Shown here one piece after another: positions 31,643 through 53,935 of a stretch of DNA of 64,000 bases (position 1 is the first letter of the stretch; each line of letters starts with the position of its first letter). The notes under the pieces are model-generated. The model saw only the letters and a list, made by a program, of their open reading frames with translations, was not told the DNA's origin and did not search any database. The translations under genes and the position numbers were made by a program. Origin of the DNA: Deuterostichococcus epilithicus. Its lineage: Eukaryota > Chlorophyta > Trebouxiophyceae > Prasiolales > Stichococcaceae. The stretch spans positions 372,009 through 436,008 of the forward strand of contig JAVTLE010000021.1 of NCBI GenBank assembly GCA_033439295.1, written 5' to 3'.

Positions 31643-34600
31643 TCACTGGAAGAAGTAGACGTTCTTGAACCACTGCGAGGTCCGCACAGCTGGAGGTCAG
31701 CACACTGCGTCCGCACTCATCAAGCGCGCTGGTGGTGTCGCTCTGATGGCGCCAGCAACGGGTCAACTCGGCCCTGCAGTGCACTCCTCTGCAACAGATC
31801 CACCCCTCATAAAAGTCACTAGAAGTCCGAACGCCACGCAGCTGCCTCACCTGTGCATCCTCTGGCTTGGTCTCTGCCAGCTGCGCGCCCTCCACCATCT
31901 GCTCGATGTCCTGCGGGCAGCAGAAACAGCACCAACGTCTGCGGATGTGAGACGTGACAGCAGCACGATGGATGGTGCGCCCCAGTGTTTCTTTCTCTGC
32001 GCCTGCCATGAACCGGCACACCATACACGCTGCTGACCACATGATTGAAATGATGCGAGCCCCGAACGCAGAAACCCCGCTGCATCCTGCAGCCTGCTTT
32101 GATCCGCAAGCACTGCCCACATCCCGTGCACGCTCTGCCCCGCAGCGCTCAAGCCGCCGGTCCGCAGCGCAGGGCTGGCCCAGCCACCGTGGCCGCGTCC
32201 TGGTGCCTGCAAACCCTGCAATTTGAACAGCGTGGCGGCGCGCCCCCAGCCGCGAGGTCACTGCTCGGGCCGGCAGCGCTGGTCCCCAACGCTGGGCTAG
32301 GTGGCGCAGGCAGCAAAGGTGGGCCTCTGCTCAGAAGGCCTGTGCGGGAGGAGACGGCTGCCCAGGGCAGCCTCTGGCCAGGGGTCGTTCCCCGTCGAAG
32401 TGTGGCACCTTGACGAGGCGGTCAAAGGGCTGCGGGCGCTTGGTCTTTTTGATGTCAAGGATGGTGTCCGGCGTTGCGTCCTCGCCGTACAGCGCCGCAT
32501 TTTGTTTGGCGTCCACCGCAATGCGTGCCCCTGAGCAGGGAAGTGGTCACAGATGGCTATAGACATAAGATATTAAACCACGATTGAAGACGATTCGTCA
32601 GACTTCAGGACGAGTCGAGGCTCGGGGTGTTTCAGGGTCCAGGCCGTGCAGCGCCGCACTCAGCTTCCCGTGGGCAACGCCCTGCTCAGATGCTGGAGTG
32701 CTTGTGAAGTACTTGTTTATTGCGGGGGTCAGGGTTGAGGGGGATGTGGCGCGGTCCTGGGTTCGCAAAAACTGCTTCCTGTTTGGGATGCACAGCGGTG
32801 CACGCGATTGTGCAGGAGGTTGCAGGGTCTAGGGCGATTCAGGGCAGACTCCAGGCGGTGGGATTAAAGGGTTTAGAGATTGGGCCCAGGGCGTTGCAGG
32901 CAGGGACATGAGCGCGGTGCGTCTCCTGAGAGGGCAGGCCTGGAGCCGCAAAGCGAGACTCGCCTTGCAGCGGCAGCATGAAGGGGCGTTGGCTGCCCTG
33001 CTCGATCGCATAGCCCACCTCAGGCCGATCCGGCACCATGGACCTGCGCAGCAAAGCCAGCTTGTACGGCAACCCCCTACCCCAGGTGCCACTGCGAGGC
33101 TGGTCTGAGGGTTCAAGGGATGCGCGGCCGAGCGGGCAGGTCACAGCAGCCTGGCGCCTGCTGCTCGCGAGCCCCTACTCGAAAGCGTAGCACCTACCAG
33201 CGCAGCGCAACACCCCGCCCCAAGGGCGGCATGGGTCCGCGGCAAGCGCAGCAGCCAGGGCATGTGCAGCTAGCTTTCAGCAATGTGCGTATCGTGGCAT
33301 CAGGGCACTTCGTGTGCTGTGGTACCTGCTGCAGATGGAGTCCTGGCGTGTTGCCCAGTCACCACCCAACCGCCAGTTCACCAGCAGGGGTGCAACCAGA
33401 GGCCACACAGGGAGGNNGGGCAGCACCTGACGCTCTGGCTGCGGCCACGGCTGTGGTCAGAGGGCTTGACATGCTGGCTGAAGTCACCGGTGGTGTGCCG
33501 CCGCTTGCCGAAGTTGCCACTGCCGAGGCTGCCGTTGAGCAGGCTCTTGCCCAGGGACTTGACCTTGAACATGCTGGACTTTGGCGGCGAGCCGACCATT
33601 AGTTCCTCCTGCGCGCCATTGTATGCGAAGGTGAATGCAGAAGGGATTTGAGTTGCATTATGCACCCCACCACAACTGACCAAAACAGTAGCTGAGGGGA
33701 CAGCAAGCGAAGTTCGTGAAAACTTAAATCAGATATTGCATCAGAGCCAGAGATCAGAAGTTGCATTCGCAGGGTCGTGCTCTTCCTGCTGCTGCCGTTG
33801 CTGCCAGCCATTGACCACGTCGCAGGCGCCCACAAAGCGGCAGCTTGCGCCGCTGACTTTGAATCAGCAGTCGACAAGGAATGTTAGTTTCCCACCTCAT
33901 CTGTGGCCTCGTCCTCAGGCGCAAAGTCCACCTCGGACGCTTTGAGCCGGTCCAGCGCCTCCTGGCTGGGCAGCACCATGACAACGTGCACCTGCTCCAT
34001 GTCTGCGGCAGCAGACGCACGACAGGTAAGCCTCTCTGCATCTCTGGGTGCACGATGTGCATTTCCACCCTCCGAGTCGCCTCAGGCGCAGGCAGCACCA
34101 TCACCACATGCGCCTGCTCCATGTCTGCGGCGCACAATCAATGCGACATTATACTTTGCGCGACAGTTGACTGTGGTGTCCAGCGTCCGGCTCTCTAGCA
34201 CAGTGCCGACGCTGCCTCCTGGCCGAGCAGTCGGGCAGTGCTCCATGTGCCAGCTGTTCAACATAGTCACTGCTGCCGAGGGGCTTAAGAATGGGGCCAG
34301 CGCCTTCCGGGGTGGCAGTCCTCAAGATGTGCACCTGGTCCAGGTCTGCAGCGGACCACAGGTGAAGCAGTGGGTTTCAATTTGGCCCAGCAACTTGTTG
34401 ATGGCGCTGCAAGTGCCGAGCTGGCGAGGCAGTGGCTGCCAGTGCCTCCTGACTAGCAGCACCATCCCGTGTATGCTCGCTCAGTGCCACCAGCGCGGCG
34501 TGCATTGACACTTTGAGCTCTTGATCTGCATCTTGTGCCACCGCGTTGGTGAAAGATTTTCGCATGGCACCCAGCTTGTGGCATGGCACTTTGAAGGGTC

Positions 34601-37600
34601 GGTCGACGCGAACATCTTCCAACACAGTCCGCTGGTAAATGCAGCAGGCGCCTGGTGCAAGGCTGCCGGCGGTGATGGCCGGCAAGGTTCCCAGTCGAGC
34701 GGCCCTGCCAAGGGCTGCGCCCCCACAAAGCTTACCTAACCCGCAACTGTCGGCGACAGCAGCCCGGATCAGGGGCGCACTGCGGCAGGCGGGCGCAGAT
34801 GCCGATGGTTATTCAAGGCAGTTGGCGTGATCATAGTCCTCCTACTATCAATGAACAATGAAGATTTGATGCAGGACGCACTGCGGTAGGCGGGTGGCAG
34901 GCCGCGGACGTCGATGGTGAAGTAGGAGGGTGCGGACCAGCGCGTCTCCCGCCGCGAGTTGGTGCTGCGCCCGATGACGAAGCCGCTGCCGCGCAGGAAC
35001 TTGACGCCCGTGCCCGTCGACTTGAGCATGCCGAACGCCAGGCCCTGCGGTGGCAGTGTGGCAGGCAGCCAGTTGGGGCAGCTGCAGAAGCGGCAACACG
35101 TCATCATCCGCTGGGAAGCCGACGGGCGAGTCGCGGCGGACGATGCGGCGAGTGGAGACCAGCGGCTGCGGCGGTTCCTGCAGCAGGGCGCCGCCGCGGT
35201 AACTGACGCGCAAACCGCCGGGTGGGAGCTGCCGGCCGGTCGCCCGTGGCACATCCGGGCAGCAGCGTTTAAACCCTTCAGGCGTTTGTACCCTTCACCT
35301 TGGCCTGGCGCACGGCGGTCATGTCGAGGGGTTCGCTGTCCTCCGGCAGCCACTTGGGCGGCAGCGTGACCTTGCGAAGCAGCTTGAAGGCGTCTTGAGC
35401 GTCCACCTCCTCCCCTGTCAGCTTGGCCGTCTGCGGGGAGATGATCAGGGTGACAGCCGTCAGAGCCGGGTTGGGAGAGACAGCTCGCAAGGCGTGCCAC
35501 GCGCCCACCGCCCCCCTCACCAGGCATTGCCGTCTGCGGGCCAGAGCAATGCACAGACTCAGTCGTAGACCGTTTCAGGGTCCGTGGCGAGTGTTGCCAG
35601 ATCCCAGCCTGAGTTCGTCTTGTGAGAAGAACGCGTTCATCTCCCTCCCCACTCAGCTTGGCTGCCTGCAGTCAAGGTCACGAGAAAGCGGCTCAAGGGC
35701 AACATGTCACATGTGCAAGAAAATCAGCTGCGTCTGATGTGCCTGGCGGATTTTGGCGGCAAAAACGAGGCGCAATGCCACGCCCTTGTCCAACGCCAGT
35801 AGGGCAGCGCTGGCGGCTGCACCCTGCCAACTCTTGCCCTGACCCTGGAACCCGGCTTTTCCCGATGCGCCGCAGGTTCAGGGTTTAGGGTTTTGGCACC
35901 TTGTCGGTGAGCTGGCGCGCGGCGCCAACGAGGGCGCGCGAGATGACGCCCTTGCTGGCGCCGGCGTGGCCGGCCAGCGCCGCCCCGGTCCCAATGTCCA
36001 GCTGCTTGACCAAATACTCGCCATCGTACGCCGCCTGCGTGGTTGCGGCAGGCAGAAGATTTGCTGTGCGCCTCGGCTGAATCCATGTGGCCTTTGGTCC
36101 AGGAACTAGGCCGAATGTGATCAGCACGTTGCAGGCCTGCTCCTGGCAGCAGCTGCTCGTGGCCATGGCTGCCTCGGCATGGCGCTGCTGTTAGAGCTGC
36201 ATGTGTATGCGTCGCAGCTCGGTTGCGGGTCGCCGCTCAGACAAACCCACCTTGAAAAAGCGGTGCTTGACGAGCTTGTCGGCGGGCGTGCGCCCGGCTG
36301 GGTCCTTCTGCAGGCACTTCGCCACCAGGTCCTGCAGGTCCTGCAGTATGGATGGAAAACCCGAATGCTCAATGATTCAACACCTTCAATTGCTGAACAA
36401 GAGCTGAACAACCTCGCCGCGAGGGTCTGCACTGTTCCAAGCCGCCAGCCGGTTGCCGCAGAAGCATGGTGGCTCTTTCCCAGCAGAGCTGCAGAGCCTG
36501 CCGCCGACCGGGGCAGGCGTCCAGGTGCGCAGTGGCCGATCCCCAAACTACTGCCGCGCGAGGGCGCGCAATTGCAGGGAGTTGGCTGTCTTTCGAGGTG
36601 GCCGCTGTCTCGGCCTGGACTGGAGTCCGGCCCTACCCGCCAGCTTCACAGCTCCAGGTACCAAGCGAGGGCCAGCAGTGACACCAGACAAGAGCCAGCG
36701 GGCAAAGAGGTCCGCACATCGGTGAAGCGCTTGCGCCGATCAGTCGACTCCAGCACGGGGGGCGCCTCATTCAGTGTCTTCATGAGGATCTGGTCCAGGT
36801 TGCAGTTCTGCAGCGGCGCCGCCCCCAGCGCAAACTCCAGCAGCGTGATGCCGAAGGACCAGATGTCGGCGCTGCAGTTGTACCTGTGAGGCCAGCATGT
36901 TTGTTTTCGTCACTTTCACACGAGACACAGGCGTGCGTGCGGTGCATCGCTCCGCAGCGGCCCAACGGCTCTGGTGACCGGCACCTGCTGGCAAGGGCGC
37001 GCCTCGTGTGCACGCTGGTGATCACTGCAGCTTCCATCACAAGCGCTGCCGGAGAACGGGTGCAGTGGCGGCGCTGAGCTGCCAGGACAGGAAGCAGGGG
37101 CGGCGTCCCAGACACAGCGCCATGGAGTCAAGGGAGCTGGGGGGGACGCAATGGTTTCATTGCGGTCAATTCAAATCAACTCGAAGAAAGGGAAACAACG
37201 CACTGCTGGCCATCCTCCATGACCTCTGGCGCCATCCAGCAGGGCGTGCCAGCAAAGGTGGTGCGGGACAGGTAAGCCGCCATGCCGTCCGAGCTCATGC
37301 GGTCCTGTGGAAAAGCGGCCGGAAGCTGGCTCAGTGGGCACCGTGCGCGGATGCGAGGCAGCTCACCTACCTGGCACCAGTCAGCAAGGAGGCGGACCGC
37401 CAGAGACAGCGACCTCCATAGCGGCATGCATTGCAGAAGCGGAGCAGGTGCTGTTTGCAACAGTGCCTCGCCGTCAGGGCGTACAGGCGGGGGCGTGCAA
37501 GACGTGACACCCCCAGGAACAATGGCACACTTGGCTCTCACCCCAAACGAGCAGGTGGGGTCTGACGCATCCTCACCTTGCCGTCGGGGTGGGCATGCAG

Positions 37601-39814
37601 GCGATGGTTGCGGGACATGGCAGCCGCGACGCCCATGTCCGCCAAAATAACCTTGCCCTCCTGGTCGATCAGGATGTTGCCTGCCTGCGAGTATGATATG
37701 TACGGCGTGAGAGCTGAGAAAGCGCAGCGTGTTCATCTGCTCGGGAGCGGCCCCAAAACGCCAGGATGGGATGCTGCCCTCCTGGTTGAAAAGGGTGATT
37801 CCCGCCTGCGCGCGAGGAGCTAGTGCATCACGACGAGCCTTGGAGGCGACCAGCAAGGGAAAGGGGGGTTACAGGCGGCGCTGACGTGTGCTGCATGACA
37901 CCTCGCGCTGGACAGCTGCACTCATGGAAGGTTACCGCCTGAGCGTTGCGCCAACTAGCCTCGTGACGTTCCCTTGGGAAACTGTCAGCACCTGCGGACA
38001 GGGCAGGCAACATGCCAGGAAGGGATGCCAGCTGCGATGCCACCCGCCAGACAATCCTGTGCAAGCTTGCCTTGAGGTCGCGATGGATGTAGCCGTCCTT
38101 GTGCAAGTACGCCAGCGCGTGCAGCACCGGCTTCATGATTGTCGCGATGCAGTGCTCGTTCAGGCCCTGCGGCACGGCGGCAGCGACACCTTCATGGGCA
38201 TCCCGATGATGGTGGACCTCACATGGTGGCACGTCCACGGCTGCCAGGATGCTGGACTGAGTTCGGCCAGCCTTGCCTGTTGGCAGCGGGGCGGCACAGC
38301 ATACAAGACATTCAGAGGTGGCTGGGCTCGTCAGCCATATCCAAGTTATCCCACACGATGCCGCCGGCCACTCACATTCGAGTTGTTACGCTTCATGATG
38401 TCGGATGCGGAGCCACCGGACACATAGGGCATGACCATCCACAGCTGATCGTCCACCAGGAAGGCGGCGTACAGCGGCAGGATGTTAGGGTGCTTCAGCA
38501 GCTTCATCGTCTGCACCTCCACAATGATAGAGGGCTGCGGCGCAGCAGCATGTCAAGTCAGTGGAATGAGTCTGAGTGTTTGAGCGGATCCATTGTCTGC
38601 ACGTCCGCAATGACAAACGGCTGCGTCACAGCAGCTGGCTGCTCGATGCAATGCATCACATAAGTTGCAGCCTTTGCTGTTGTGACAGAGAAATGCACGA
38701 CACCCACACTCCCGATCATCCCTTATGGGAGAGGGCAGTCTTGTGAGCATACTCGCTGGCATAAGGTTGCGCGTCTGTAGGCACAGGGTGTAGTAAGATT
38801 GCGACATAAATCACCAGGTTGATGCTGGGCTCATCCAGGTTGACGATCTTTACCGCCACGTCCACATCCTGACTGGGGCAGTACGCCAGCCACACCTGGC
38901 GCATTGAAATACAATCTGTCATCGGACCAGACTCCCAAGTCTCTTGAAGCACAACAAGATTATCTTAACCGCATGGCCGAGCTTTGGCGATGCATGCTGC
39001 ACCAATGTGGAATACAAAGCAATTTTCAGGAGGTTGCCAACAAGTCAGAGTGGGCAATTTCTTACCGTGGCGGTGGCGCCCTGCCCCACCTCCTCCACCA
39101 GCTCATACTCGTCCGCATCGGCGGGGTAGAAGCCAAAGTTCCTACAGGGATAGACAGCAACCCATCAGAGGCCTTGCACCTGCTCCTTTCGATGCACCTG
39201 GCTCCTGCAGCAACCTTGGCAATGTTGGGCAATCGTCCAGCTGGACTGCGCTGTCCGATTCGACAACACCCTGACTTGCGCCGCCAGAAGCGCAGCCCTG
39301 TCAGAACCCACCAGGCGTCGGATGCATGGCGTTGGATGCTGCTGGCTGCCTCGCTGATCGCGGACTGCAGGTTACCGTACGACCGGCTCTCGTGCACGCT
39401 GCCGTCGCTGCCGCCGTGGCCGCTGCCGCCGCTGCGGTGGAGCGTCAGGTCGCTCACGGTCTGGTACAGAGTGCGGCCATGCCCCGAGCCGTCCTCTGAG
39501 CTTGACCGCTTCAGCTTGTCGGCCAACTTGCCAACTGTTCTCTCCTTGATCGAAGCGGAGAAGGAGACGCTGGAGGCAGACGGCCGCCGGCTGCCGCCGC
39601 TGCCGCCGCTGGCACCACCGGGCGAGTCGCCAGTGGCGGCGCCGCCATCAAGCAGTGCCGCCAGCTTGGACGACGAGCCAAAGGACTTGGAAAGGCTGGG
39701 CTTGAGGCGCCCAAGGCCGCGGCCGCTGGGCCCCGAGCCGTGCAGTGGCGGCTTGGTCTCCGACGGCAAGGATGGCTCTGGCGCGGAGCCAGGCCGTGGA
39801 TGTGCTTCCGACAT
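31643..39814 (-). CDS. STE20/FRAY-like protein kinase fused to a C-terminal SYLF (Ysc84) domain
   Basis: Kinase exons: 39066-39141, 38815-38895, 38376-38534, 38071-38166, 37577-37684, 37204-37304, 36718-36883, 36251-36340, 35900-36034. SYLF exons: 35299-35430, 34882-35044, 33896-34002, 32409-32530, 31851-31910, 31643-31672. Kinase motifs: EEVGQGATAT loop, VAVKI lysine, KLLKHPNILPLY, YIHRDLK then AGNILID, ADMG (not DFG), GTPCWMAPE, ADIWSFGITLLE, KHRFFK then AAYDGEYLVKQL (the post-kinase block of STE20 kinases). SYLF motifs: KLLRKVTLPPKWLPED, AVRQAKGLAFGMLKSTGTG, WSAPSYFTIDVRG, VHVVMVLPSQEALDRL, NAALYGEDATPDTIL; C terminus DAQ joined to WFKNVYFFQ. An N-terminal Ser/Gly-rich segment (39376-39814, MSEAHPRPGSAPEPS) likely belongs, but its phase does not join the first kinase exon. 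At least one exon is missing between 33896 and 32530, where the sequence has Ns. Two adjacent genes remain possible. Confidence 0.78.
33417..33418. other. Ambiguous bases (NN)
   Basis: Two unresolved bases inside the SYLF part of the kinase gene, in the stretch where an exon is missing from the model; a collapsed or unfilled assembly gap may lie here. Confidence 0.9.
34075..34490. repeat. Three decayed copies of the edge of SYLF exon 33896-34002
   Basis: The exon's 5' edge and acceptor (plus strand GCAGCACCATGACAACGTGC then ACCTGCTCCATGTCTGCGG) recur at about 34080-34130, 34295-34354 and 34438-34490, increasingly diverged, all inside the intron upstream of that exon. Confidence 0.7.
37748..37812. 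repeat. Echo of kinase exon 37577-37684 (acceptor edge)
   Basis: CTGCCCTCCTGGTTGAAAAG and flanks match the exon's TTGCCCTCCTGGTCGATCAG region, including the CCTGCG acceptor, at an offset of about 120 bp into the upstream intron. Confidence 0.65.
38590..38640. repeat. Echo of kinase exon 38376-38534 (acceptor edge)
   Basis: GTCTGCACGTCCGCAATGAC then AAACGGCTGCG matches the exon edge GTCTGCACCTCCACAATGAT then AGAGGGCTGCG at an offset of 86 bp, and the match continues past the acceptor into intron sequence. Confidence 0.75.
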
Positions 39815-40777: not shown

Positions 40778-43356
40778 ATGGAGGATTTCATGAACAAGCA
40801 CATAGACTTCAAGAACGAGCGATACCAGACGGTGAGCTTGGTCATCATGCTCCGCGCGCGATCCGCGCTGAGGCGATAATGTCGTAGCTGATGGCAGAGT
40901 GTTTGCCACCGCTGCAGATACGAGAGCTGGGCAGGGGCAACTTCGGCGTGACGATGCTGATGCAAGACAGGGAGACCAACGAGTACGTTGCTGCAAAGTT
41001 TATCCAGCGGGGGGCAAAGGTGAGCCGTGTGCAAACGCATGCCTGCGCTGCTCGCGCCCCAAGTGCAAGCCATTGCCAGGCACTGACCCCCGGCCCTGCC
41101 GTGCCTGTCGTGCCGCAGATCAACGTGAACGTGGAGAGGGAGCTGCTCAACCACAGGCCACTGCTGCATGCCCACATCATCAGATTCAGAGGTGCGCGCT
41201 CTGTTCAACTGGTCAGCCTGCCTGCAAACAACTAAAAAGCAAAACCATTATGACATGACAAAACTTGCACAGGCCTGCCTGAGCGAACTCTTCCTGCAAC
41301 GCAACCCACCCCGCCAAACTTGCAACAAGGATCTCAAACAATTGTCTTCCGCTCACTGCGGCCCGCTGCATCCCACAGAGGTGTTCCTCACCACGACACA
41401 CATTGCGATCGTGATGGAGTATGCCTCCGGCGGCGAACTGTTCGAATTTGTGAAGCGGTCGGGGCGACTGTCAGAGGACGCCGCCCGCTTCTTCTTCCAG
41501 CAGCTCATCTCTGGCGTGGACTACTGCCACAGACAGGTGCATGCCTCGGCGCGGCCCGCTGCCATGCGCCAGAAGCTTCTGTGTGTTGCAAGCCTGCAGT
41601 AAGGCTTGCTGTCATACCGGCGCGCGCTGTTGCTGCCTGCTGCCGCATGACACACTCTCCGGACATCTGAAGGGTCCACAGGGTCGGGCGCGCGCCTCGC
41701 GGCCTTGTGCTGCCTGACGGAATCCTCCTTACCGAGGCCTGCAGAGGCTGTCATGGACTGAAGCACGCTTCAAAGTAGTGCGCCAACCTGCCGGCCCGCC
41801 GCTGACGAGTGCGCGAGACGGCCGGTCGCTTTAAGGTCGTAGGCTCCGGCACCTGCTGCAGCTCGGTGCTGTTCTTGAGCAGCAGCCCAGCCTGGCGCCT
41901 GTTGGCTACTTGACTGCAGGGTGCCTGGTATCAGCAGGCAGATGACACTGGGTTCTTTGGCTGCACAGGGCGTCTTCCACCGGGACCTGAAACTGGAGAA
42001 CACGCTCATCGACAGGCAGCCGAACTCGGCGCCGCGGCTCAAAATCTGCGACTTCGGCTACTCAAAGGTGAGCCATGTGCCTTTTCGGGCATCGATCGCA
42101 GGTCAGATCCTCGTCAGCGACAAGCTGACAGGGCAGACCACTCGAAGTCGGGTCTGACTTTGAGGCTGTGGCATGCGCTGCGATGTTGACAGCGCAATAG
42201 CCTCCGCTGAGCTGACTGACAGTGACAGCACTGCGAACCGCATGGCACGCGTTGAACGGTTCGCAGCCCATCATGGTAACACCAACTGAGCGTCTTCCTC
42301 CTCGCACTATGCGCCACGAGGTGAACGGCTCGGCAGCCGAAAGGCGCCAAGGGCTCAGATCGCTCCCGCATTCGTTGCACTGCTTGCTGACCGCACTGCC
42401 TCCCGCCGCTGCGCAGCACGCAGTGAACGACTCGCAGCCGAAGAGCGTCAAAGGAACGATCGCATACCTGGCGCCAGAGGTGGTGCTGTGCAATTTCAAC
42501 AAGGCCAAGTACGATGGCCGGCAGAGCGACATCTGGTCCTGCGGCGTGATGCTGTACCTCATGCTCATCGGCGCGTACCCGTTCCAAGACGGCACCAACC
42601 CCGCCATGTTCTCCAAAACCGTCAAGGTGCCACCAGAGTCCGCTGAATTTTGCCTGGTTGGTCGCCGCCATGCGTGAGCAGAGGGAGGCAGAGGTTGCCA
42701 CCCACTGCTGGGTTGGCAGCCGCGCCTGTGAACTGCGCCACACGATGACTGATGCGGACGCGCACATGCTGCTGCAAACCTGTGATCGTGTCAACCTGAG
42801 CGCGCAACGCCAAGCCGACCACGCCTGTCTCGCAGAAAATCGTGACGGCGGATTATGTCATCCCGGAGGGCATCTCGCTGTCGGCTGAGTGCAAGGACCT
42901 CATCCGTTTCATCTTTGTGGTCAATCCGGGCCAGCGCATCAATTTGGACCAAATCAAGACGCACCCCTGGTTTGTGCGCAACTTGCCGCTGGAGCTGCAG
43001 CAGGGCAACCTCAACCCGACAGTGCCCACCCAGGTGACGGAACTATCCTGTTTCTGACAAGCATATTGACGTTTTTCATTGGACCGCCTGCTGGCAATTT
43101 GGAATCGCAGGGTCGTCGAGTTCGCGAGGAGACAACGCGAGGAGACAAAAAGTGCATTTCAGTGTCTTGCCTGCTCGCTGAAGTAACGTTTGTCCGGCGC
43201 TGCCCCCGGGGTTTCGCGGCTGATGCTCACGTGTTCCAACTCGTACAGGCAGACGACGTGCAGTCCTCAGAGGCAGTCAAGGCCCTCGTGGAGGAGGCGC
43301 GCACCGTGCCACAGCAGGCAGATGCCACAGGCGGCGCAGATGACATGCATGAGTGA
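40778..43356 (+). CDS. SnRK2-type serine/threonine protein kinase
   Basis: Eight exons in phase: 40778-40831, 40918-41019, 41119-41191, 41379-41536, 41969-42067, 42438-42626, 42836-43033, 43249-43356; 326 residues. N to C: ERYQT joined to [15 protein letters not shown] (Gly loop), [10 protein letters not shown] (Lys), [20 protein letters not shown] (alpha-C Glu), [32 protein letters not shown] (HRD), [10 protein letters not shown] (DFG), [14 protein letters not shown] (activation loop and APE), [48 protein letters not shown]. The short acidic tail (ending GGADDMHE) is like SnRK2 proteins, which signal osmotic and, in land plants, ABA stress. HRD and DFG residues are all present, so an active kinase is expected. 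The ATG gives a normal SnRK2 N terminus. SnRK2 is clearly the closest class; subgroup not assigned. Confidence 0.93.
42250..42350. repeat. Two echoes of the SnRK2 exon-6 acceptor region
   Basis: The acceptor edge GTGAACGACTCGCAGCCGAA (42423 on) recurs as GTGAACGGCTCGGCAGCCGA at 42321 and GTTGAACGGTTCGCAGCCCA at 42251, all in the same intron. Confidence 0.75.
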
Positions 43357-44236
43357 CAGATGCCAATCCGCTTCGACCAAAGCTCCAGCATGAACAACGG
43401 TCATCACAACGTGCATGTGGGCTTGCTGGAGCTGGAAGCACGACAGAGCTATCACTTGTTGAAGAACTCAGGACAGGTAGCTGGGATGGGATCTGCACAT
43501 TAAGGATGTGCGCTTGCAGCTTTGTTGGTCGGCGCGTCGGCAAAACCTGCACATGGGGCACTGCGCTTCAAATTCGTGACATTTGCTGCCTGTTCTATAA
43601 CAGATCGTTCACTCTACATGAATGGGCACAACAATCACAGACGGACAGACAGACACACATAAACGGGCACAACAATCAAAGACAGGCATCAGCGTTTCGA
43701 AGCAGTGGGGCTGCATCGGCGGTCCTCGGCGGCGTTCTGAGGGGAGCGACCAGAGAGGCATCACGAGAGCTGAAGCTGGCCATCAGTGGCCATTTCGAGT
43801 TATATAGCATGCCTCGGTCAGCAGCAGCAGAATCACGACCGATCTGCCGCAGTTTCTTGAGCTTGCTTCCGTCGTCTTGAACCTTGCTCAAGATCTGGGG
43901 TCAATGGACACATATTCGGAAGGCCACAATTGCATCAAAAGCATGTCCAGGTCCTCTGTTTGACTGAAGCTCAGCCCTTGAAACCTGGCGCCTCGACGCC
44001 CCCGATACATAAGCCGGACTAAGCAGGTTTTGTTTCGGAGCGAATGACTGGTGGGGTTGCAAAGCCCGTGTAGCGCCAGGACGACGAAGAGTACCGTTAG
44101 GCTTCAGCTAGAAGAGCTGTACCTCATCACATAGCTGCGGGTCCTAAACCTGAGGCCAGTCGGCCAAAGCTGCATCGGGCATCGGACACCCTTTGACCCT
44201 GTGCTCGTCAGAGGGCACACCATGGTCGCGAATATC
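43357..44236. other. Intergenic region, SnRK2 / ALIX
   Basis: It carries the SnRK2 3' UTR and the ALIX upstream region. A short direct repeat (GGGCACAACAATCA at about 43624 and 43665) flanks a CAGACGGACAGACAGACACA microsatellite-like stretch. No coding exon was seen. Confidence 0.5.
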
Positions 44237-47200
44237 ATGCTGGCGTTGCACTGCAAGAAGACGGAGGCCATCGACTTGAAGGGCCCCATCTGGGAGTACA
44301 TATCCAACACCTACTCGGTGGAGCAGGTCCGGCGTCCTGCCCCGGCTTTTGGGCCATCATGCCTGTTAATAAACCCCTGCATTGCCTTGCTTTCGGGCCT
44401 TGACTGCTCCACATGACGCCAGGAGATTTTTACACTCCTTCAACCACGTCGACTTTCCTGCGGCGAAGCCACATATGGTACTGTGCCACGGAGGCCAACA
44501 GGAACGCCTCCCGAGCATGACAGCCGCCCCTCTTCTCGCTGCTCGCAGGCGCAGGATGCACAGGAGGACTTGGAGATCATCCAGGGCCAGCGTGGGCAGA
44601 TCGTGGGCATGGCTGGCTCGCTGCCCGCCCTGCGCGACACCATGATCAAGTACGTCCGCCTGTTCATGACATTTACAGCGTCAGCGGCTCCCGCTACCCC
44701 AGGCTCTGCACAGCTGGTCATGTTGCACGGCACCCTCATGAAACTGCAAGCCAGAAGGAAGACGAGCACAAGGGCGGCACCCAATGGCGGGGCGCCTGCA
44801 GCCCAAGCTACCATGCTGGCAGCTTTCCCTGCCGCGAGCGGGTTTGAATGCCTGTAGCCCACAGCGGCGCCTGACGCTCTGCTGTGCCTGTGTGCTGCAC
44901 AGGTACTACCGGGCGCTGAGCTCCATCGAGACACGCTTCCCCATCTCCAAGGACGCGGGGCACGTGCATGTGGCCTTCCAGTGGTATGACGCCTTCCGTC
45001 CCACCAAGCGCGCCGAACAGGTTTGGCGACCCCTCCTCGAAGACCGTTTGGGACACCTCTTTCGTGCCCTGTGATTGCGGCTGTGCTTCAGCACCTTTTC
45101 GATTGTAGTGGTGCAGGAGCGCCTGACCCATCCGCAGCCTTTCAGCCATCATTCCCCTTCCGGACAAACTCATTTCATGATAACTTCTACCCGGCACTGC
45201 CCTGTGTGCATTTCCACAAGCTTCACCGTCCGAAATTTGCTCCCGAGACGGAGAGGCCGCCCGCTCACCCGCAGGCAAGCATCCACTTCGAGAAAGCGGC
45301 CATCCTGTTCAATATTGCGGCAATTGCCAGCCAGCTGGCGGTGGCGGCGGACCGCACCAGCGATGCCGGCGTGAAGGAGGCCGCTCGCCTGTTCCAGGTC
45401 AGCCACTGGCAAACTTGCAGGCAGGCTGGGGAGCCCACCGGCCCAGATAAACGCTGAGAACCCACTGCATCAGCCCATGTGAGGGCATGCCGAGCCGCGT
45501 CACAGAGATTGCGGAGACGGAGCCGGTGTGGCGGCGACGCTTTCAAGCGGCCTGATGAGTAGCACCAAATGTCGAGGCGAGTCGATCGGCACGTGCTGAT
45601 CCACTGATGTACTTTGGAATGTGTTGCTCGTGCACAGGAGGCCGCAGGCGCCTTTGCCTTCCTGCGGGACGAGGCCAGCCTCAAGATGGACGCGCCGCGG
45701 CCTGCGGACCTAGGCCCCGAGGCGGCCGCCATGCTGGAGCGGCTGATGCTGGCGCAGGCGCAGGAGTGCGTCTTCGAAAAGGCAGCTGCGGACGGCAAGT
45801 CGCCCTCGCTGCTGGCCAGGTGCGCAGGCCTGGACAGCAGACCTGATCTGCGCGAGGTGCCAAGTCTGCTGCAATCGCCCAAGAGAGTGATTGCACCAGA
45901 CCGATCTGTGCTGGGTGCCTCGCCCCAGCGAGCGGACGCAGCAGCCTGGCTAAGGAGGCGCTGGGCCGCAAGAAGCCGAGCCACCTGCGGCAGGGCACAA
46001 CCACCTTTTGGAACTGCTGCGGCCTCAAGCGACCCACCTCCCGGAGAGAACAGGTTCCAGATCGTCTGCCACGATGTGTTCGAGATATGGTTCCGGTCGA
46101 GCTGATGCCGGTCGAGCAGACGAACCCTCCAGGCGACTGGGCCGGCGCCCGCAGGATTGCGAAGCAGGCGGCGGCGCTGTACGCGGACGTGCTGTCGGCG
46201 CTGGGGCAGCCGCCGCTGGCGTCGCACCTAGACAAGTCGTGGGCGGCGCACGCGGCCGCCAAGGCCGGCATGTACGAGGCGCAGGCGCTGCTGGAGTCGG
46301 GCAACGCCTTCCACGCCGAGGACAACATCGCCTCCGAGATCGCGCGCCTGCGGGTGAGCGCGGCCTTCCGTTTCCGGCGACTCGCATCGGCTGCCATGCC
46401 CCTCGAGTGCCCTCTAGTGCCCTCGAAGGTTGCGGCACCTCAGACTGTCTGGCGCTCGCGACGATCCACCTTCCAAGCGGCCTGTGTGCTGATTGTGCAT
46501 GGACCGGACATCCCCCCCCTCCCGCCCCGCCACTCCCAATGACGCTTTGATTTCTTTGACATCTGCTGCCCCCAAACAGGACGCCCAAAAGGCGCTGGCG
46601 CCGGTGCGCAAGGACATGCGCGGCTGCAACAAGGAGCTGGTGGACGCCGTCAGGGCGCTGGAGGAGGCCATCGCCCAGCACCTCACCAAGGCGGAGCGCG
46701 AGAATGCGACCGTGTACCTGCAGGTGCTTTCTTACTTTGCACGGCATCACATGCCTGCTCAGCAAAGCATGAGCAATTATTTAGAGGGGTGGCAATAAAG
46801 CTGAATTAGCGACTTGCAGGTGCGTTACAGGAATATCTCTCGTTCCCCTTGGTGCGGCGCTGGACATTGTGGAAACCCTGAGGGTTCCACACCGCTTGCC
46901 GATTGCGCGCCGATTTCGTGCTGAGGTCCCGCGGCGCGCTCGCCGCCATGTGCCATCTTGCGCCACGCTCGACACCACGCCGGCCGTGCTGAAGCGCGAG
47001 CGGGGGGATGAGGGGGGTGACACCCCTAAGGGCCGTGGGTGAGGTGTCATTGAACGGCCACGGCAGCAGTACAGCACGCTGTGTCCGGTACATTGAGGCT
47101 CGGCTGGCATATCAGCAAATGGACACAATCACACATCATGTAGCCTGACGGGGCGCCGTCGCTGTGCCCTGCAGCGGGTGCCGGCCGCGAAGGACCTGCC

Positions 47201-50200
47201 GGCCATCGTGTCGGCGATGCTGGTGAAGCCGATGCCGCCGGCGCTGGACGCCAGCGGCGAGGGGCTGTTCACCACCGTCATCCCCGACGGCAGGTCTGTG
47301 CCCCCTGCTCCCCCCCTTGATGCACCCACTGGGAGCAGCCCCTCCTGTCAGTGCAGCTTTGCCAGCGGCGCAGGCCGCTCCAGCAGCGCCAAGCACCGTG
47401 GGCACCTCTGATGCGGCACCTGATGTTTCACTTTTGAAGTACCTGGCTGGCCTCCGCAGCGCCAGGGGAACTGAGGCGGTACAGCCACACGGTGGCAATG
47501 CGGCGGGAGCAGCGGGAGCTGCTGTGCTTGCTGAACCATCCCAGCCGAATTCGGATGTACGAGCTTCATTCGACATCCAAGACTGGATTCGAACTCCTGC
47601 TGCCGCAGCGCCAAGGCGCTGAGCCGGTACAGCGACATGGTGGACGCCATGTGGCGGGAGCAGCGGGAGCTGCTGGACGGCGCCTCCGACGAGGCCCGCC
47701 TGCAGCTCCGGCAGTGGGAGCTGCCCGAGGCGCTGCAGGTGCGCCTCTCTTTGGGGAGGAAGTGATAGAGGAGGAAGTGATGAGCTTCGGCAAATCATCC
47801 GTTCCTTGGGCGCTGGCGAGGCGCTTTCCCAGCTGCACCACTGCCGCTAGGAGCTGCCCAAGGCGCTGCAGGCGTGACAACTTCTGAGTTGCAGGGCAGC
47901 GGCGACTGGAGAAACAAGTCAGTGTCAAATGTTGTTTTGCTGTCTTTGCATCAGGCAGGAGCGAGGCAAGCCGCGCTTCGTGCTGGGTTCGCCACGGTGC
48001 TGCCACTGGGTGTATTCAGGGGGTTTGGGTTTCGAAAAGGCTGACGAGGGGTCGCGTCGATTCGTTTTGATGGCGTGAAGAAGCTGCAGAAGATGGCATT
48101 GTCCAGGACGTACTTGCTAGCTGCTTGCCACCACTGCTCGGCCGCATGTGCAGGTGCTGGATGCTGGAAGCAGCGTGGCGCTGCCGAAGGGCATCTGTCA
48201 GGAGCCGGAGAAGGTCGCCACTTGGCAGGATGTGTCCGGCCAGCTGACTGCCACTGCTCGACGGCATGCGCAGGCGCTGGATGCTGGAAGCAGCGCGGCG
48301 CTGCCGGAGGGCATCCGTCAGGAGCTGGAGAGGATCGAGGACGCCGGCGGCCTGCGCTTCCTGCAAGATCTGGTGTCCCAGGTCAAGGTGCGACTTTCTG
48401 CCGGCCTCGGCGACGCACGTCAGGCGGCTGCTGTGCTTGTCCAGGCAGGCTTGACCGGCCTGCCTCCGTCTGCAAGCACGGTCCGTTCTTCAGGGCCCAA
48501 TGGCTGTTGAATGGCTTTCAGGGCGGCAGCCCTGTGGGCATGGGGCACCTGGCGGCATGTATCTACTGTCTTGCTGTTATGTCTACTTTCTTCCTATCAT
48601 GATCAGCAATGGAGACGCCTTTGGCTTCTTGCCCTGAACACGTTGGTTACACATTTGTAAAATTATAGGAGCTTTCCAATCGTCAGCACCTCATGAGTTG
48701 AGCCCTCCATCACGCCAAATGCTGCACTGAGAGCTGGAGCGCATTAGGCGTGACAATGAGCTCCAGGCCGGGAGGTGCTGACGACCAGATCGGGAAGGCT
48801 CCTGTAGCGGCAAGGCTGCAGAAGCAACTGACGTGGTCAAGGCAGAGAAACCAAAGCCGGAAACCTGGATGGTATCAGCGGCCATGCACCCTTTGAGGTG
48901 TGGATAACCCACCCTGCAGCACCTGCGGCGGGCGTTCCTCAGGACATCGACCAGACCGAGGGGCGGCTGGGATCGGAGGGGGACACAGGGCTTCGGCCGC
49001 TCACGGATGCAGACTAACAGGAGGTTCGAAGGAGGGTGTTTCTGAAAACTCAAGTTGGAGGTTTCTGTCGGACTGTGCAGGACCTGCGGCGCGTCGCCGC
49101 CGAGGAGCTGGACCGCATAGAGGGGCAGCTGGACGCGGAGTCGGGGGAGGACGCGCGGCTGCGGCAGGCCCACGGCGCCGCCTGGAACAGGCCGTCCAGC
49201 GCCGCGCTCAACTCGGCGCTGCGCGAGAAGGCTGCCGGCTACAGGCGCGTCGGGCTTTGGGACTCAGTTCGGGTCAGGATCCTGAGCCTGGAGAGTTCCA
49301 GCAGCGTCGCGAGAGGGTCACGAGAGCAGGATCCGCCCTGTTGAGCCTGCCCTGTCGGCCTCGGTGAGGGGTGGGAGCGAGGGCGCTGATGCAGGCGTCA
49401 GGGGCCGGGGGCTACTGCAGCCGGGTGTGCCGCAGCACGGCGGGGGTGCGGCGGGTTTGGTTGCACTGCCTCGTAGAACAGCAGCCGACGCTCGGTGCTG
49501 CCTCCTGGGCAGCAGTCAAGAGGGCGGCATCACCACTGGCACTGCCAGTCTTGCACTGCCACAGGAGAGGATGCTCTCTTGTAGCAAGAGAATGTGACGG
49601 CGGTCCTGGCGAGGCAATGCTTGCGAGATCATGCATGCCTTTGTGCCGCACGGCCAACGTGACACCGGTGGAGCATGCTCCCTCGAATGGAAACCAACTA
49701 GTATCAGTCATCAGCAAAGAAGATGTGGATGAGGCACTCTGATGACCGTGCCGCAGGGCCATTCTGACGGCTGCCGGCGGCAGCGGCGCGCCCCTAAAGC
49801 CTGCTGCTCCACATTGGATGTCCACGCGCGCGAGGCATATGCGTTGTTTCCAGAACCGTACACCCCTGCAAAGGCCTGCTGCTGTGCCGCAGGGCCAACC
49901 TGGCTGCGGCAGGCGGCAGCGATGTGCACCTGGCGTCTCTCCTACGCAGTCTTAGCTGCGGCGGACGATGCAGCCCTGCTGGGTATCTCAACATGGACTG
50001 CTGCTGGCTGCAGGGCCAACCTGGCGGCTGCCGGCGACAGCGATGCGCGCCTGGAGGCCAAGCTCTCTGCCAGCGGGCCCGCCTTTGCCGCGCTGTCTGT
50101 GGACGCGGCGGCCGTGCAGATGCCGCGCCTGCAGGTGTGTGACAATCTGGCATCGGGCGATGACTACGATGCCCCCCGGCATGCAGCCCCTGTCCGCCCA

Positions 50201-53200
50201 GCACACAACAAAGCACGGACGTTCCTGTTCGGCATGCAGCCCGCTCGCCCTGCACAGAGCATAGTCAATCAAAAACGGCGTGCCAGGCTTTCATGGGTCA
50301 ATTCGCCTGAGAGCCGTCTGCAATCGCGCATGCATTCACCGGCAGACGCACATCACCTGTCCCTTGCAGGCAATGTGCATTGGGCTTGTGAAGGCATCCG
50401 CATGCTGGATTCTGCGCCGCATATGGGTCGCGGCCACCTCAATTCACATACTCACGAACTAACCATAGGATGGTCATTGCGGCGTGCTCTGCTGTCACGT
50501 GGTTCCGACCCCTCTGATCCATCAGGAGGTGCTGCGCAGGCGCCCATGGCGCCTGCGGGCGATGCGGTGCGAAATGTTGTCCTGGGCGCGGAGCCCGCCG
50601 ACATGGCACGATCCTGCTTCACACACGAATGTTCAGCTTTACTTATCCTTTTGGTTTACTCGCAGGCGCCGATGGTGGCGGTGGGCGATGCGGACCCGGG
50701 CGTTGTGGTTGCTACGCTGCGGCAGGCGCTGGAGGCCCTCAGCCGGCTGTCCAACGAGCGCGCCGCCCTCGAGGAGGCCCTCAAGGTGCGTTCTTCGTCC
50801 TCTTACACCAGCGGACACGTCTGAGACCATGAAATCTATGTCACTGCTCATTGCCCCGGAGGAGGCTTCGAAGGTGGGTCTCGTCTGGTTCTTGCCAGCA
50901 GCAGCAAATCGAATGACCCTCAAAATGCGGTCCATCAGCATTTACGGGTCCTCGAGCTCGCCTGAGAGCGCCGGCAGCGCTCACACTAACCACCCCCCGC
51001 TGCTTTACAGCGCCGTCTGCAGCTCCCACCTCCTGGACTGCACTGCGCCCGAGCCACCTGCACCTCTGCTGCGCAACCTTGCCAGTCTGAGTGAAGTCGC
51101 ATGTTTCGCCGTCGCCGCCAGGCGGAGAAGGGGCGCGACAACATTCTGCCGCACATCATGGCATCCTCCGAGGGGCACACGGCGCTGTTTGCGCGCCAGC
51201 TGTCCAAGTACGACGGCCTCAAAGCCGACATCGCGCGCAACGTGGACCGCCAGCGGCAGCTGCTGGGCCTGCTGGACGAGCAGCAGGCGGCCTTCCGTGC
51301 TGCATTTGGCTTCTCCGAGTGGCGCCGCGCCTGCGAGGTGCGCGCCGTGCTGCCCCAGCTGCCCACGGCCCTGCCCAGCGCCTCAACAGCGCAATGGCGC
51401 CGGCGGCCTCTCAGGCGGCTGGCGGCGCCGCCGGGAGGCGTCGTGGCGGCTGCCGCGGAGGCTGCGCGAGCCGCCGCCCCTCTCAGCGCCTGCGCACGCA
51501 GGCAGCTGCACCTCGCATTGCACAGCGCGCTGCAGCTCGACGGTGATCGACTGCGTCCTCGTACCACCTCGCCAGGGGAAGAACTGCTCCGATTGGACCC
51601 CGCAGGGCGCCGCGGCGGGCGTGCGGGCACAGGTCGCGGCCTTCACGGAGGTGCGGGACAACCTGAGCGAGGGGCTGCGCTTCTACTCCAGCCTGCAGGA
51701 GGCGCTCACCTCGCTGCAGCAGCACGTCGGCGACTTCTGCCTCACCCGACGCATCCAGCGGTGCGCCGCCGCCGCCTCAGCTGCATGCCCCATGCCGGCT
51801 TCCTCCGTCGCTGCTCGAAGTGTTGCGTGCATGTGCTGCAGCTTCAGAGCGCCCCTGTGCCAGCGGTGGGAGGCCTGCATCTGTGATGCCGTTCAGTGGG
51901 AGGCGCCGCAAGCTGCGGCCGCACGTGGCCTGCACGTGATCCTCGTTTCCAAATGTCAGAATGCTCATGTTTGCCGACTCGCTCATCGCTGCAGGGAGGC
52001 GAATGTGGAGGTGCACAAGCAGCAGAAGGCCCACAACCTTGAGGTTTTGTTGTGCACCGCGCCGTTTTTGTGCACACCCTGTACAACAGGTATCGGACTG
52101 TAACTGTGTTATGATATGTCAGGGAGGAGATGGTGGAGGAGCAGCGGCGGCGGGAGCAGGATGAGGCACGCAACCTGCGGGCAGCACAGGAGCTGTCCCG
52201 CATGAGCCTGTCGCCCGCAGGCAGCGGGCCGCCGCCGCCGCATCAGCAGCAGCAGCCACAGTACCCGCCGCCGTCCTACCCAGTGAGGATTTGTCGTCAA
52301 GCTTCACAACACCAACGCATGTACAGAGACTCGCTTGCCCCCATCGAGCATGAAGACAGTCGCGAGGGAGGCGGTCGCTGCTTGCCGCCAGTCAGCAGCC
52401 GCGCACTCGGCCTTCTGGACCAGCAGCGACACACACTGACTGCCTCCAGACTCTGACGTCGTCATGATGAGGTGACCTGAGAAACCAACGATAAGTTTGT
52501 CCGTTCGTGTGCAGGGCCAGCAGCCATCGCACTCGCATTCCTCGTCCTTTGGCGGAGGCGCGCCCTCGCCGCCGCCGCCGCCAGCCTACCCGCCGCAAAA
52601 CCTGCAAGGATCCGCCTACGGCGCCCAGCAGGGCCACCAGCAGAGCTACGGGCAGCAGGCGCCGCCGCGGCCGCCGGCGCCGGCCCACCCGCCTGCCAGT
52701 CAGGGTTACGCTGCTGGCGGCGGCCAGCAGCAGCAGTACGGCTCGCACGCACCACTGCCGCCGCCTCCGCCTCCACAGGTGACACGACTTGCTGCCTGTG
52801 TTCTGTGTGCTAGCCACGACCTGTCAGCTCGGACAGCGGTCTGCAAACACACAGACTGTTGTCGCCCCAAGGGCGGCCGCGTCCTGGATGCCTGCGTCTG
52901 CGGTCTGGGGCGCTTAACATCACGTCACGCCGGCATGGCGCCACTGTCCACGCCTGTCCCGCAGCCGCACGCCAATGGCCCACCTCCTCAGGGTCTCGCT
53001 CACTTCCGTCCGTGTCTGGTGGACAACTGCAGCACTCAGCGCCGCCGCCGCCGCCGCCTGCCAGCTTCTACGGCGTCCAGGACCAGCCTCTGTCGGCCTT
53101 CCAGCAGCAGCCGCCGGCTCCGCCGCCCCAGGTGAGGAGTGGTTCGGGTTTAGGGTTTCAGCCTCTCGGATCCCGCTGCCGCCTGACCCTGTGGGCTGGA

Positions 53201-53935
53201 TGCTGTTGAGGTTCGGTGCATCGCCGTTCTAGGGCGCGCTCATGGCCGCGGCGCCCGAGATCGCCGCCCTGCCACCGTGCAGCACGCCTTTCCCTCCGCC
53301 AAGCCTGATGCTCACAACACGTGCAATGCTGCAGCACTCGCAGTATAGCGCGCTGTCGTCCTGCGTTAAGTCTGGTGATGACAGCATGTGCCATGCTGCA
53401 GCACTCGCAGTACGGCGCGCCGCCGGCCTTCTACGGCAGCCAACACTCCAGCCCTGCGCCGCCGCAGCAGCAGCCGCAGCAGCAGTATGGCTACGGCGGC
53501 GCCCCTGTGCAGCAGCCGCACTACCCACCCTACGGCGGCGGCGGCGGCTCCTCTTATGAACCGCACCCGCCGCAGCAGCAGCAGCCGACGCACAACAACC
53601 GCTACGGCGACGCCCTGCCGCAGCACGACCCCTACGGGCAGGTGGGCACCAGGCTGGGCGAGCGGGTATGCTTGGCGGCGAAAGCGGTCGCAATTGCGCC
53701 ATGTGCACGCGCTTGCGCTGCTATTTGCCTTCCAGGCCAGCCAGCGGCGCTGTTTGCACACAACTGCACGTTACTGTGACTGCGCGCTGCTGTGAAGCCG
53801 TCTGCACGAGTGCACGGTGCACGGAATGTGACTTGTGGCTTGCTGACGGTGCTGAACCCCGCGATGTGGCTGCTCGTGCAGCTGCCGCCGGGCAGCGGCG
53901 TTGCGGGCAGCAACCCGCTGTGGGGCGGCCGCTGA
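44237..53935 (+). CDS. ALIX-type BRO1-domain protein (ESCRT-associated)
   Basis: Twenty exons, 961 residues: 44237-44326, 44549-44649, 44903-45020, 45275-45397, 45638-45819, 46155-46353, 46580-46723, 47175-47293, 47609-47738, 48274-48387, 49081-49244, 50014-50134, 50666-50785, 51122-51337, 51633-51760, 52123-52282, 52515-52778, 53033-53131, 53402-53641, 53882-53935. BRO1 domain: KKTEAIDLKGPIWEYISNTY, VAFQWYDAFRP, SIHFEKAAILFNIAAIASQ, AGMYEAQALLESGNAF. V domain: RYSDMVDAMWREQRELLDGA, LERIEDAGGLRFLQDLVSQV, LFARQLSKYDGLKADIARNV. Tail: Pro/Gln/Tyr-rich (SAPPPPPPASFYG, YEPHPPQQQQP), as in ALIX. ALIX recruits ESCRT-III in endosomal sorting and membrane repair. All phases close if the exon-11 donor is GC (ACAG|GCGCGT). 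The start could instead be the ATG at 44222. Several introns hold exon copies (see findings). Confidence 0.93.
47451..47531. repeat. Echo of ALIX exon 9, upstream copy
   Basis: CGCAGCGCCAGG, GCGGTACAGCCACACGGTGG, and GCGGGAGCAGCGGGAGCTGC reproduce the exon-9 acceptor and its first 70 coding bases (CGCAGCGCCAAGG...), about 155 bp upstream of the real exon. The copy's frame is broken relative to the exon. Confidence 0.85.
47818..47873. repeat. Echo of ALIX exon 9, downstream (donor-side) copy
   Basis: GAGGCGCTTTCCCAGCTGCA and GGAGCTGCCCAAGGCGCTGC match the last ~50 bases of exon 9 (GGAGCTGCCCGAGGCGCTGC), with the GCAGG donor edge changed to GCAGGCG. Confidence 0.75.
48132..48216. repeat. Echo of ALIX exon 10, 120-bp tandem copy
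   Basis: Acceptor plus about 65 coding bases are repeated at an offset of exactly 120 bp. The copy is still open and in frame: it reads VLDAGSSVALPKGICQEPEK against ALDAGSSAALPEGIRQELER in the exon. Confidence 0.9.
48915..49015. repeat. Echo of ALIX exon 11
   Basis: ACCTGCGGCGGGCGTTCCTC and CGAGGGGCGGCTGG match the start of exon 11 (ACCTGCGGCGCGTCGCCGCC, AGAGGGGCAGCTGG) at an offset of about 161 bp. Confidence 0.75.
49751..49940. repeat. Two echoes of the ALIX exon-12 acceptor edge
   Basis: CCGCAGGGCCATTCTGACGG (49751) and CCGCAGGGCCAACCTGGCTG (49888) precede the true edge CTGCAGGGCCAACCTGGCGG (50009). Offsets are about 137 and 121 bp. Confidence 0.85.
50530..50600. repeat. Echo of ALIX exon 13 acceptor edge
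   Basis: GCGCAGGCGCCCATGGCGCC then TGCGGGCGATGCGG corresponds to TCGCAGGCGCCGATGGTGGC then GGTGGGCGATGCGG, offset 126 bp. Confidence 0.8.
50855..50884. repeat. Echo of ALIX exon 13 donor edge
   Basis: GGAGGAGGCTTCGAAGGTGG resembles the exon end CGAGGAGGCCCTCAAGGTGC, about 90 bp downstream; it preserves an AAG|GTGG donor-like site. Confidence 0.6.
53314..53365. repeat. Echo of ALIX exon 19 acceptor edge
   Basis: AATGCTGCAGCACTCGCAGT then ATAGCGCGC matches CATGCTGCAGCACTCGCAGT then ACGGCGCGC, offset 67 bp; the copy keeps a usable CTGCAG acceptor. Confidence 0.85.

What the first reader, a model, noticed from the sequence alone, without database searches (positions are those of the whole stretch)
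33896..53410. Exon echoes: introns of three neighbouring genes carry decayed copies of adjacent exon edges
In the kinase-SYLF, SnRK2 and ALIX genes at least ten introns contain one to three diverged copies of the neighbouring exon's edge. Most copies include the 3' splice site plus 25-80 coding bases; a few include the donor. Offsets are mostly 60-170 bp and divergence varies, so the events look independent and recurrent, not one large duplication. The outcome is a row of decoy or potential alternative splice sites. I did not see it in the glycosyltransferase-like, ribosomal-protein, uL4m or NIPA-like genes, so it seems regional or gene-specific. Local tandem duplication is known to create introns and alternative acceptors; what is unusual is the density, and the preference for exon-intron borders may be new.
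Basis: seen in the sequence. Interest (0 to 1): 0.82.

Follow-up and report, generated by a model that had tools for sequence, protein, structure and literature searches.

The report
Decayed exon-edge copies inside algal introns
Some introns of this green-alga-like genome hold worn copies of the edge of the neighbouring exon, mostly about 80-165 bases away; they look like old scars of local DNA duplication that made introns longer, rather than working splice sites.

Summary
With corrected, stop-free gene models, 11 of 47 introns of the three genes carry exon-edge copies at z>3. In 324 kb of this genome, 28 of 487 acceptor edges match their own upstream 500 bp at z>4; 0 match another gene's upstream DNA, 2 the reverse complement. 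Direct, not inverted, repeats are in excess at offsets of 90-165 bp. It is not confined to three genes: hits occur on all four contigs sampled, and the three genes' excess is not significant within that offset class (3 of 39 against 14 of 448, p=0.15). Use as decoy or alternative acceptors has no support: 9 of 21 in frame, 3 of 21 in frame and open. Median identity is 0.80, so most look old. A few are plain tandem duplications of 67-120 bp; most stop near the splice site and leave an unrelated spacer. Best reading: repair-type local duplications across coding borders, visible because the exon copy stays conserved; the border preference may be a survivor effect. Precedents: potato RdRp, Daphnia neointrons. 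Unexpected: telomere-like repeats cluster at intron edges.

The parts
31643..39814 (-). kinase-SYLF gene (own model; corrected exons include 33896-34002 and 38376-38534)
   Evidence: GHMM; corrected model open, 937 aa; Pkinase PF00069 E 1.3e-51 on the uncorrected model, Ysc84/SYLF below its cut-off
40778..43356 (+). SnRK2 kinase gene, 8 exons
   Evidence: SRK2E 3uc4, E 4.3e-112
44222..53935 (+). ALIX/BRO1-like gene, corrected to 21 exons (one GC-AG intron, 49245-50013)
   Evidence: BRO1 E 7.1e-90 and ALIX_LYPXL_bnd E 2.7e-48 on the uncorrected model; corrected model open
32637..32685 (-). echo of the acceptor-side exon edge, offset 161
   Evidence: z 4.4, id 0.72
34071..34131 (-). echo of the acceptor and start of exon 33896-34002, offset 122
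   Evidence: z 9.7, id 0.86; blocks 33956-34009 and 34078-34131
34294..34345 (-). second, more diverged echo of the same edge, offset 343; part of it was first mis-modelled as an 11-bp exon
   Evidence: z 6.3, id 0.80
35448..35533 (-). echo of exon 35299-35430 edge, offset 103
   Evidence: z 5.6
35633..35662 (-). second echo of the same edge, offset 235
   Evidence: z 4.5
37775..37810 (-). echo of exon 37577-37684 edge, offset 121
   Evidence: z 3.6; HSP
38559..38653 (-). 86-bp tandem duplication spanning the acceptor of exon 38376-38534 (partner 38472-38568)
   Evidence: no spacer; z 8.7
42315..42363 (+). echo of the SnRK2 exon 42417 edge, offset 102
   Evidence: z 9.5, id 0.81
42246..42299 (+). 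second, more diverged echo of the same edge, offset 171
   Evidence: z 4.2, id 0.68
47460..47524 (+). echo of ALIX exon 47609 edge, offset 149
   Evidence: z 13.6, id 0.88
47828..47872 (+). echo of the donor-side edge of exon 47609-47738, offset 133
   Evidence: z 4.3, id 0.77
48079..48217 (+). 120-bp tandem duplication spanning the acceptor (partner 48200-48337)
   Evidence: no spacer; z 17.1, id 0.90
48921..48992 (+). echo of exon 49081 edge, offset 161
   Evidence: z 5.7
49757..49809 (+). outer echo of exon 50014 edge, offset 257
   Evidence: z 5.4, id 0.81
49876..49933 (+). inner echo of exon 50014 edge, offset 121
   Evidence: z 6.7, id 0.85; block limits
50535..50567 (+). echo of exon 50666 edge, offset 126
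   Evidence: z 3.2; core id 0.85
53293..53362 (+). 67-bp tandem duplication spanning the acceptor of exon 53402
   Evidence: partner 53360-53429, no spacer
9256..9317 (-). echo outside the three genes: acceptor-side edge, offset 143-144
   Evidence: z 7.5
9913..9977 (-). echo outside the three genes: donor-side edge, offset 136-138
   Evidence: z 10.0
35875..35893 (-). telomere-like fragment about 15 bp downstream of the donor of the kinase intron 35431-35899
53146..53158 (+). telomere-like fragment about 20 bp downstream of the donor of ALIX intron 53132-53401

Best explanation
The echoes are scars of small local DNA duplications that happened to span a coding/intron border, most likely made when DNA breaks were repaired. 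A stretch of tens of bases around the border was copied and left 80-165 bp away, either directly in tandem or with filler DNA between the copies. Splicing kept using the outermost sites, so the protein was unchanged and the intron became longer. The intronic copy then decayed freely while the exon copy was kept by selection. Shown: local direct-only duplication, the offset class, the border anchoring, divergence, presence beyond the three genes, longer echo-bearing introns. Inferred: the break-repair origin, neutrality and the direction of copying.
For: Direct but not inverted repeats are in excess at short range: offset 90-165 bp, score>=14, 70 found against about 9 background and 7 inverted. 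Exon edges match their own introns and not other genes'. Offsets lie at 75-175 bp for 33 of 35 hits while the introns range from 92 to 804 bp. Three clean tandem duplications across acceptors lie in the window. The youngest case (97% over 67 bp, window coordinate -9977, upstream of the window) is 57 exon bases plus 10 intron bases copied, with a 27-bp telomere-like filler between the copies, the look of a filled and patched break. Echo-bearing introns are longer: median 314 against 220 bp; 12 of 53 introns of 400 bp or more have one, 9 of 420 under 250 bp (scores were judged against introns of similar length). In double-echo introns the nearer copy is usually the more similar (.86/.80.85/.81.81/.68.97/.81; one exception .80/.86). 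Small duplications from filled-in staggered ends, with CST-Pol alpha-primase, are shown in mouse and human cells (PMC8355091, passages read).
Against: Few events look young (2 of 35 above 0.90 identity), so a steady process is not obvious. I cannot see ancestral (echo-free) alleles. For most echoes the spacer shows no homology to the DNA beyond the copy, which whole-unit tandem duplication would predict, so filler or another step must be assumed. Intron-intron pairs at 90-165 bp are rarer (12 against 41 exon-intron); I explain this by faster decay, which is untested. Donor-side evidence was weak in one test (z>4: 9 own against 6 reverse-complement of 680).
Confidence: 0.62

Rival explanations
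1. Plain whole-unit tandem duplication of 90-165 bp across the border, with no filler; the missing similarity in the spacer is just faster decay of two unconstrained copies.
For: Three such cases lie in the window; offsets would then be the unit length; border anchoring comes for free. Simulations with old ages and high indel rates give few detectable spacers (0.16 at ages 0.25-0.5 and indel ratio 0.35; 0.11 at ages 0.35-0.6), and the mean-z comparison does not reject those two settings.
Against: 1 of 28 valid echoes shows spacer similarity at p<0.05 in the local test (after dropping one artefact found), 1 of 29 in the extension test, against a simulated 26-62% for ages 0-0.8, 0.2-0.4 or 0.25-0.5 with indel ratio 0.2. 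The 97% case has no spacer homology.
Confidence: 0.22
2. Replication or repair template switching anchored at splice-site microhomology (GCAG / AGGT): synthesis jumps to the splice site, copies into the exon and returns.
For: All 21 acceptor-side hits start within 11 bp of the splice site and run into the exon, with similarity ending 10-20 bp into the intron.
Against: The anchoring is also expected from any in-place duplication, because a block not spanning the border gives no exon-intron pair. No direct junction evidence.
Confidence: 0.1
3. Functional decoy or alternative acceptors, or remnants of mutually exclusive exons, kept by selection.
For: 8 of 20 scorable acceptor-side copies still have CAG at the junction (my count).
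Against: Offset in frame in 9 of 21 and in frame and open in 3 of 21; many indels (0.05 gaps per aligned base); mismatch only slightly higher at codon position 3; only 2 of 35 copies cover 80% or more of the exon.
Confidence: 0.05
4. Chance or shared GC-rich/CTGCAG composition.
For: Weak single hits near z 3 occur in controls (z>3: 7 of 487 acceptor edges against another gene's DNA).
Against: At z>4: 28 own against 0 other-gene and 2 reverse complement of 487 acceptors; 15 against 0 and 3 of 471 donors.
Confidence: 0.01

Closest known systems
Tandem duplication crossing an intron-exon boundary in potato RdRp (PMC4974935; abstract and Results/Discussion section read)
   Same: A local duplication includes the intron 3' end, the acceptor and the exon start.
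   Different: There it is one recent event that made a new intron; here many older-looking events lengthen existing introns, mostly with a spacer.
Internal direct repeats of Daphnia neointrons from staggered breaks (PMC4202315; passages read)
   Same: Direct repeats, some shared with the adjacent exon, attributed to staggered double-strand breaks and intron growth.
   Different: Those shared with an exon are 4-12 bp long and sit in young introns; here 25-113 bp, about 120 bp away, mostly diverged.
Direct repeats near intron splice sites (PMC11782384; abstract and part 1 of Results read)
   Same: Direct repeats at or near exon/intron borders read as scars of insertion.
   Different: 4-30 bp pairs linking the two ends of an intron; here an exon edge and a copy inside the intron. 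The ungapped end-to-end pattern was not found here.
CST-Pol alpha-primase tandem duplications at breaks (PMC8355091; passages read)
   Same: Small duplications from filled-in staggered ends.
   Different: Tandem copies in mammalian cells; here most have an unrelated spacer.
Interstitial telomeric sequences inserted at breaks (PMC7215372; abstract read)
   Same: Short telomere-like stretches read as break-repair scars.
   Different: Here they concentrate next to splice sites.

Membership tests
Small tandem duplication from break repair | Two direct copies of one block close together; no inverted excess | tested here: met
   at offset 90-165 and score>=16, 40 direct against 3 inverted
Small tandem duplication from break repair | Copies directly adjacent (offset equals block length) | tested here: inconclusive
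   Met in 3 window cases (86, 120 and 67 bp); most other exon-intron pairs at 80-165 bp show spacers of about 27-127 bp; spacer homology in 1 of 28 valid echoes and 1 of 29
Small tandem duplication from break repair | Echo-free ancestral allele in a relative | not testable with these tools
   no relative held for this genome
Intron gain by tandem duplication of an AGGT exon segment (Rogers model) | Start of intron equals start of downstream exon and end of intron equals end of upstream exon | tested here: not met
   Ungapped test over introns of 80 bp or more: score>=10 observed 0, expected 0.23. A gapped excess exists (7 against 1.6 at score>=20), but by my reading 5 of those 7 are echoes that my gene finder had called short exons; the 92-bp candidate also reads as an echo
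Mutually exclusive / duplicated exons | Whole exon with both splice sites copied | tested here: not met
   2 of 35 copies cover 80% or more of the exon; separately, one 306-bp duplication containing a whole exon lies on contig C4
Alternative 3' splice sites | Reading frame kept when the copy is used | tested here: not met
   3 of 21 in frame and open
Alternative 3' splice sites | Use in mRNA | not testable with these tools
   no RNA data
Introner-type mobile elements | Same sequence in many introns | not tested
   echoes match their own exon better than length-matched introns of other genes, which speaks against it, but no family search was run

The most novel reading that the evidence does not exclude
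In this alga the edges of introns are hot spots of DNA breakage. Breaks about 10-20 bp inside the intron are healed with telomere-repeat filler and/or with a copy of the exon side of the break, pushing older copies outward, so introns grow stepwise from their edges. Exon echoes and edge-bound telomere-like fragments would then be two scars of one process, linking intron length to repair next to splice sites.
Probability: 0.2. Interest if true: 0.8.

Novelty: new variant of a known kind. Interest (0 to 1): 0.5.

Why it matters
If right, it gives a readable record of how introns lengthen: the conserved exon is a reference for copies that would otherwise fade. It also warns gene finders: my own model called several echoes exons (ALIX 47440-47523 and the start of 49757-50134, the 11-bp kinase 'exon' 34335-34345). 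The link to telomere-like DNA at intron edges would make break hot spots at splice sites testable.

Tried and rejected
Whole-unit tandem duplication as the sole mechanism: disfavoured by the spacer tests, but older ages with many indels keep it alive; power simulations are. In one search the extension test found 14-33% positives at matching identity (0.79-0.82), against 1 of 29 observed. The outlier (z 35.2) was traced: a negative index made the 92-bp intron match itself, so that row is an artefact. Without it 28 echoes remain, 1 at p<0.05, average z about -0.2; I did not rerun the simulated comparison without it.

Intron gain by tandem duplication: a 92-bp intron on contig C12 looked like one but reads as an echo preceded by an 8-bp spurious exon. 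Edge-to-edge test over the sampled introns.

Gene clustering: not significant by permutation; the three-gene excess at acceptor edges is p=0.018 at any offset but p=0.15 within 75-175 bp. All 11 z>4 edge hits on C4 lie outside 75-175 bp. Gene-end (exon-intergenic) pairs: 3 at 75-180 bp, at least two beside genes near the end of my stretch that may be cut off, so nothing can be said.

Hand correction of kinase and ALIX exons first failed (7 and 2 internal stops) and was redone. Counts from the ab initio models undercount echoes wherever the finder called them exons.

Literature: the listings of searches (top rows only) showed no report of genome-wide exon-edge copies in introns, nor of telomere-like repeats bound to intron edges; this covers only the held open-access library.
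Full report
What was checked. The window is C18:372009-436008 of a 46.8-Mb genome of 21 contigs; its GC is 0.615. An SnRK2 kinase and telomere-like TTTAGGG fragments suggest a green alga; no tool named it. I fetched 200 kb around the window and 20 kb from each of C1, C4 and C12 (324 kb in all with the window), and trained my own gene finder on it (61 genes, 680 introns, median intron 223 bp). There are no RNA data and no relative.

Is it more than chance? Without annotation, after masking low complexity, direct repeats exceed background at short offsets, with a trough at 60-75 bp and a broad peak at 90-165 bp (score>=14: 70 against about 9 expected from offsets of 1-5 kb; inverted 7), falling to about twice background at 180-300 bp. 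With annotation, 80-bp exon edges against their own introns gave z>4 at 20 of 680 acceptor sides (reverse complement 2) and 9 of 680 donor sides (reverse complement 6). An annotation-light version (the 500 bp next to each edge; 487 of 575 acceptor and 471 of 556 donor edges scored, the others dropped for masking) gave z>4 at 28 acceptors (other gene 0, reverse complement 2) and 15 donors (0 and 3). Of the 28, 17 lie at 75-175 bp and 11 at other offsets; of the 15, 5 and 10. C4 gives only other-offset hits in this test, 6 acceptor and 5 donor.

The three genes. My first models absorbed several echoes as exons. Corrected models are open throughout, and the SnRK2 model aligns with solved SnRK2 over residues 11-319. 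In them 11 of 47 introns carry echoes, plus one tandem case at 53293. Elsewhere only uncorrected models exist. At acceptor edges, z>4 at any offset: three genes 6 of 39, rest of window 1 of 55, rest of C18 9 of 289, other contigs 12 of 104. Within 75-175 bp: 3 of 39, 1 of 55, 7 of 289, and 2 of 32, 0 of 41, 4 of 31 for C1, C4, C12; three genes against the rest p=0.15. In the intron-based test C4 also has hits (offsets 129 and 135, z 4.1 and 3.8). So it is a widespread trait; local enrichment in the three genes is suggested but not established.

Anatomy. Blocks of 25-113 exon bases; all 21 acceptor-side hits start within 11 bp of the splice site, and 10 of 14 donor-side hits end within 9 bp of it. 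Median identity 0.80, with indels. Similarity runs about 10-20 bp into the intron and stops. Spacer homology to the DNA beyond the copy appears in 1 of 29 echoes (extension test) and 1 of 28 (local test, one artefact row removed). Simulated whole-unit tandem duplications of matching identity gave 16-36% positives in the local test, and 11% at identity 0.76. Some cases are clean tandem duplications (67, 86 and 120 bp in the window). The youngest (97%) has a 27-bp telomere-like filler between copies.

Mechanism. I favour local duplication during break repair, spanning a border by chance. A duplication wholly inside an exon is purged; one wholly inside an intron decays on both copies; only the border-spanning class keeps one constrained copy and stays visible. 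Echo introns are longer, and in four of five double-echo introns the nearer copy is the more similar, consistent with stepwise growth. Few events look young, so the main activity may be past.

Function. There is no sign of selection for use: 9 of 21 offsets are in frame, 3 of 21 in frame and open, and CAG directly precedes 8 of 20 scorable acceptor-side copies (my count).

Telomere-like fragments. In 324 kb there are 13 (19 control 7-mers of the same composition: 0 to 7 each); 12 lie in introns, 8 of these with the midpoint 15-24 bp past the donor, in both orientations. Genome-wide counts of a telomeric 9-mer after AGGTRNG: CCCTAAA orientation 38 at 0-25 bp against 12 at 26-51 and 16 at 80-105; TTTAGGG orientation 103 against 22 at 26-51. 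Before GCAGG: CCCTAAA orientation 205 at 2-27 bp against 120 at 60-85; TTTAGGG orientation 88 against 115. Caveats: these motifs are not proven splice sites, the TTTAGGG array can itself supply part of AGGTRNG, overlapping matches are counted, and AG avoidance before acceptors would also deplete TTTAGGG there. Three of the 12 telomere-bearing introns also carry an echo (P 0.017, or 0.043 weighted by intron length). I read this as a hint, not proof, of shared break repair.

Known kinds. See Closest known systems: a boundary-crossing duplication is known singly (potato), and staggered-break repeats in new introns (Daphnia). A genome-wide population of exon-edge echoes with a narrow offset class did not appear in the listings of the searches named in Tried and rejected.

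Noticed in passing
window 35875-35893 and 53146-53158; genome-wide counts: Telomere-like (TTTAGGG)n fragments concentrate within about 30 bp of donor-like sites in both orientations, and (CCCTAAA side) before acceptor-like sites. This may be more novel than the echoes themselves.
   Followed up: partly
L024/L025 joined, 12964-13575 (contig C4): A 306-bp tandem duplication containing a whole predicted 126-bp exon, core identity about 0.78-0.88.
   Followed up: no
ALIX 49245-50013; kinase introns 32531-32963 and 37685-38070: GC-AG introns; 31 of 680 predicted donors are GC.
   Followed up: no
window coordinates -9977 to -9698 (C18, upstream of the window): Young (97%) donor-side echo with telomere-like filler plus a more diverged third copy at offset 221.
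   Followed up: partly
the 324-kb sample: Very intron-rich genes: about 11 introns per gene, and more intron than coding sequence (164 kb against 102 kb).
   Followed up: no
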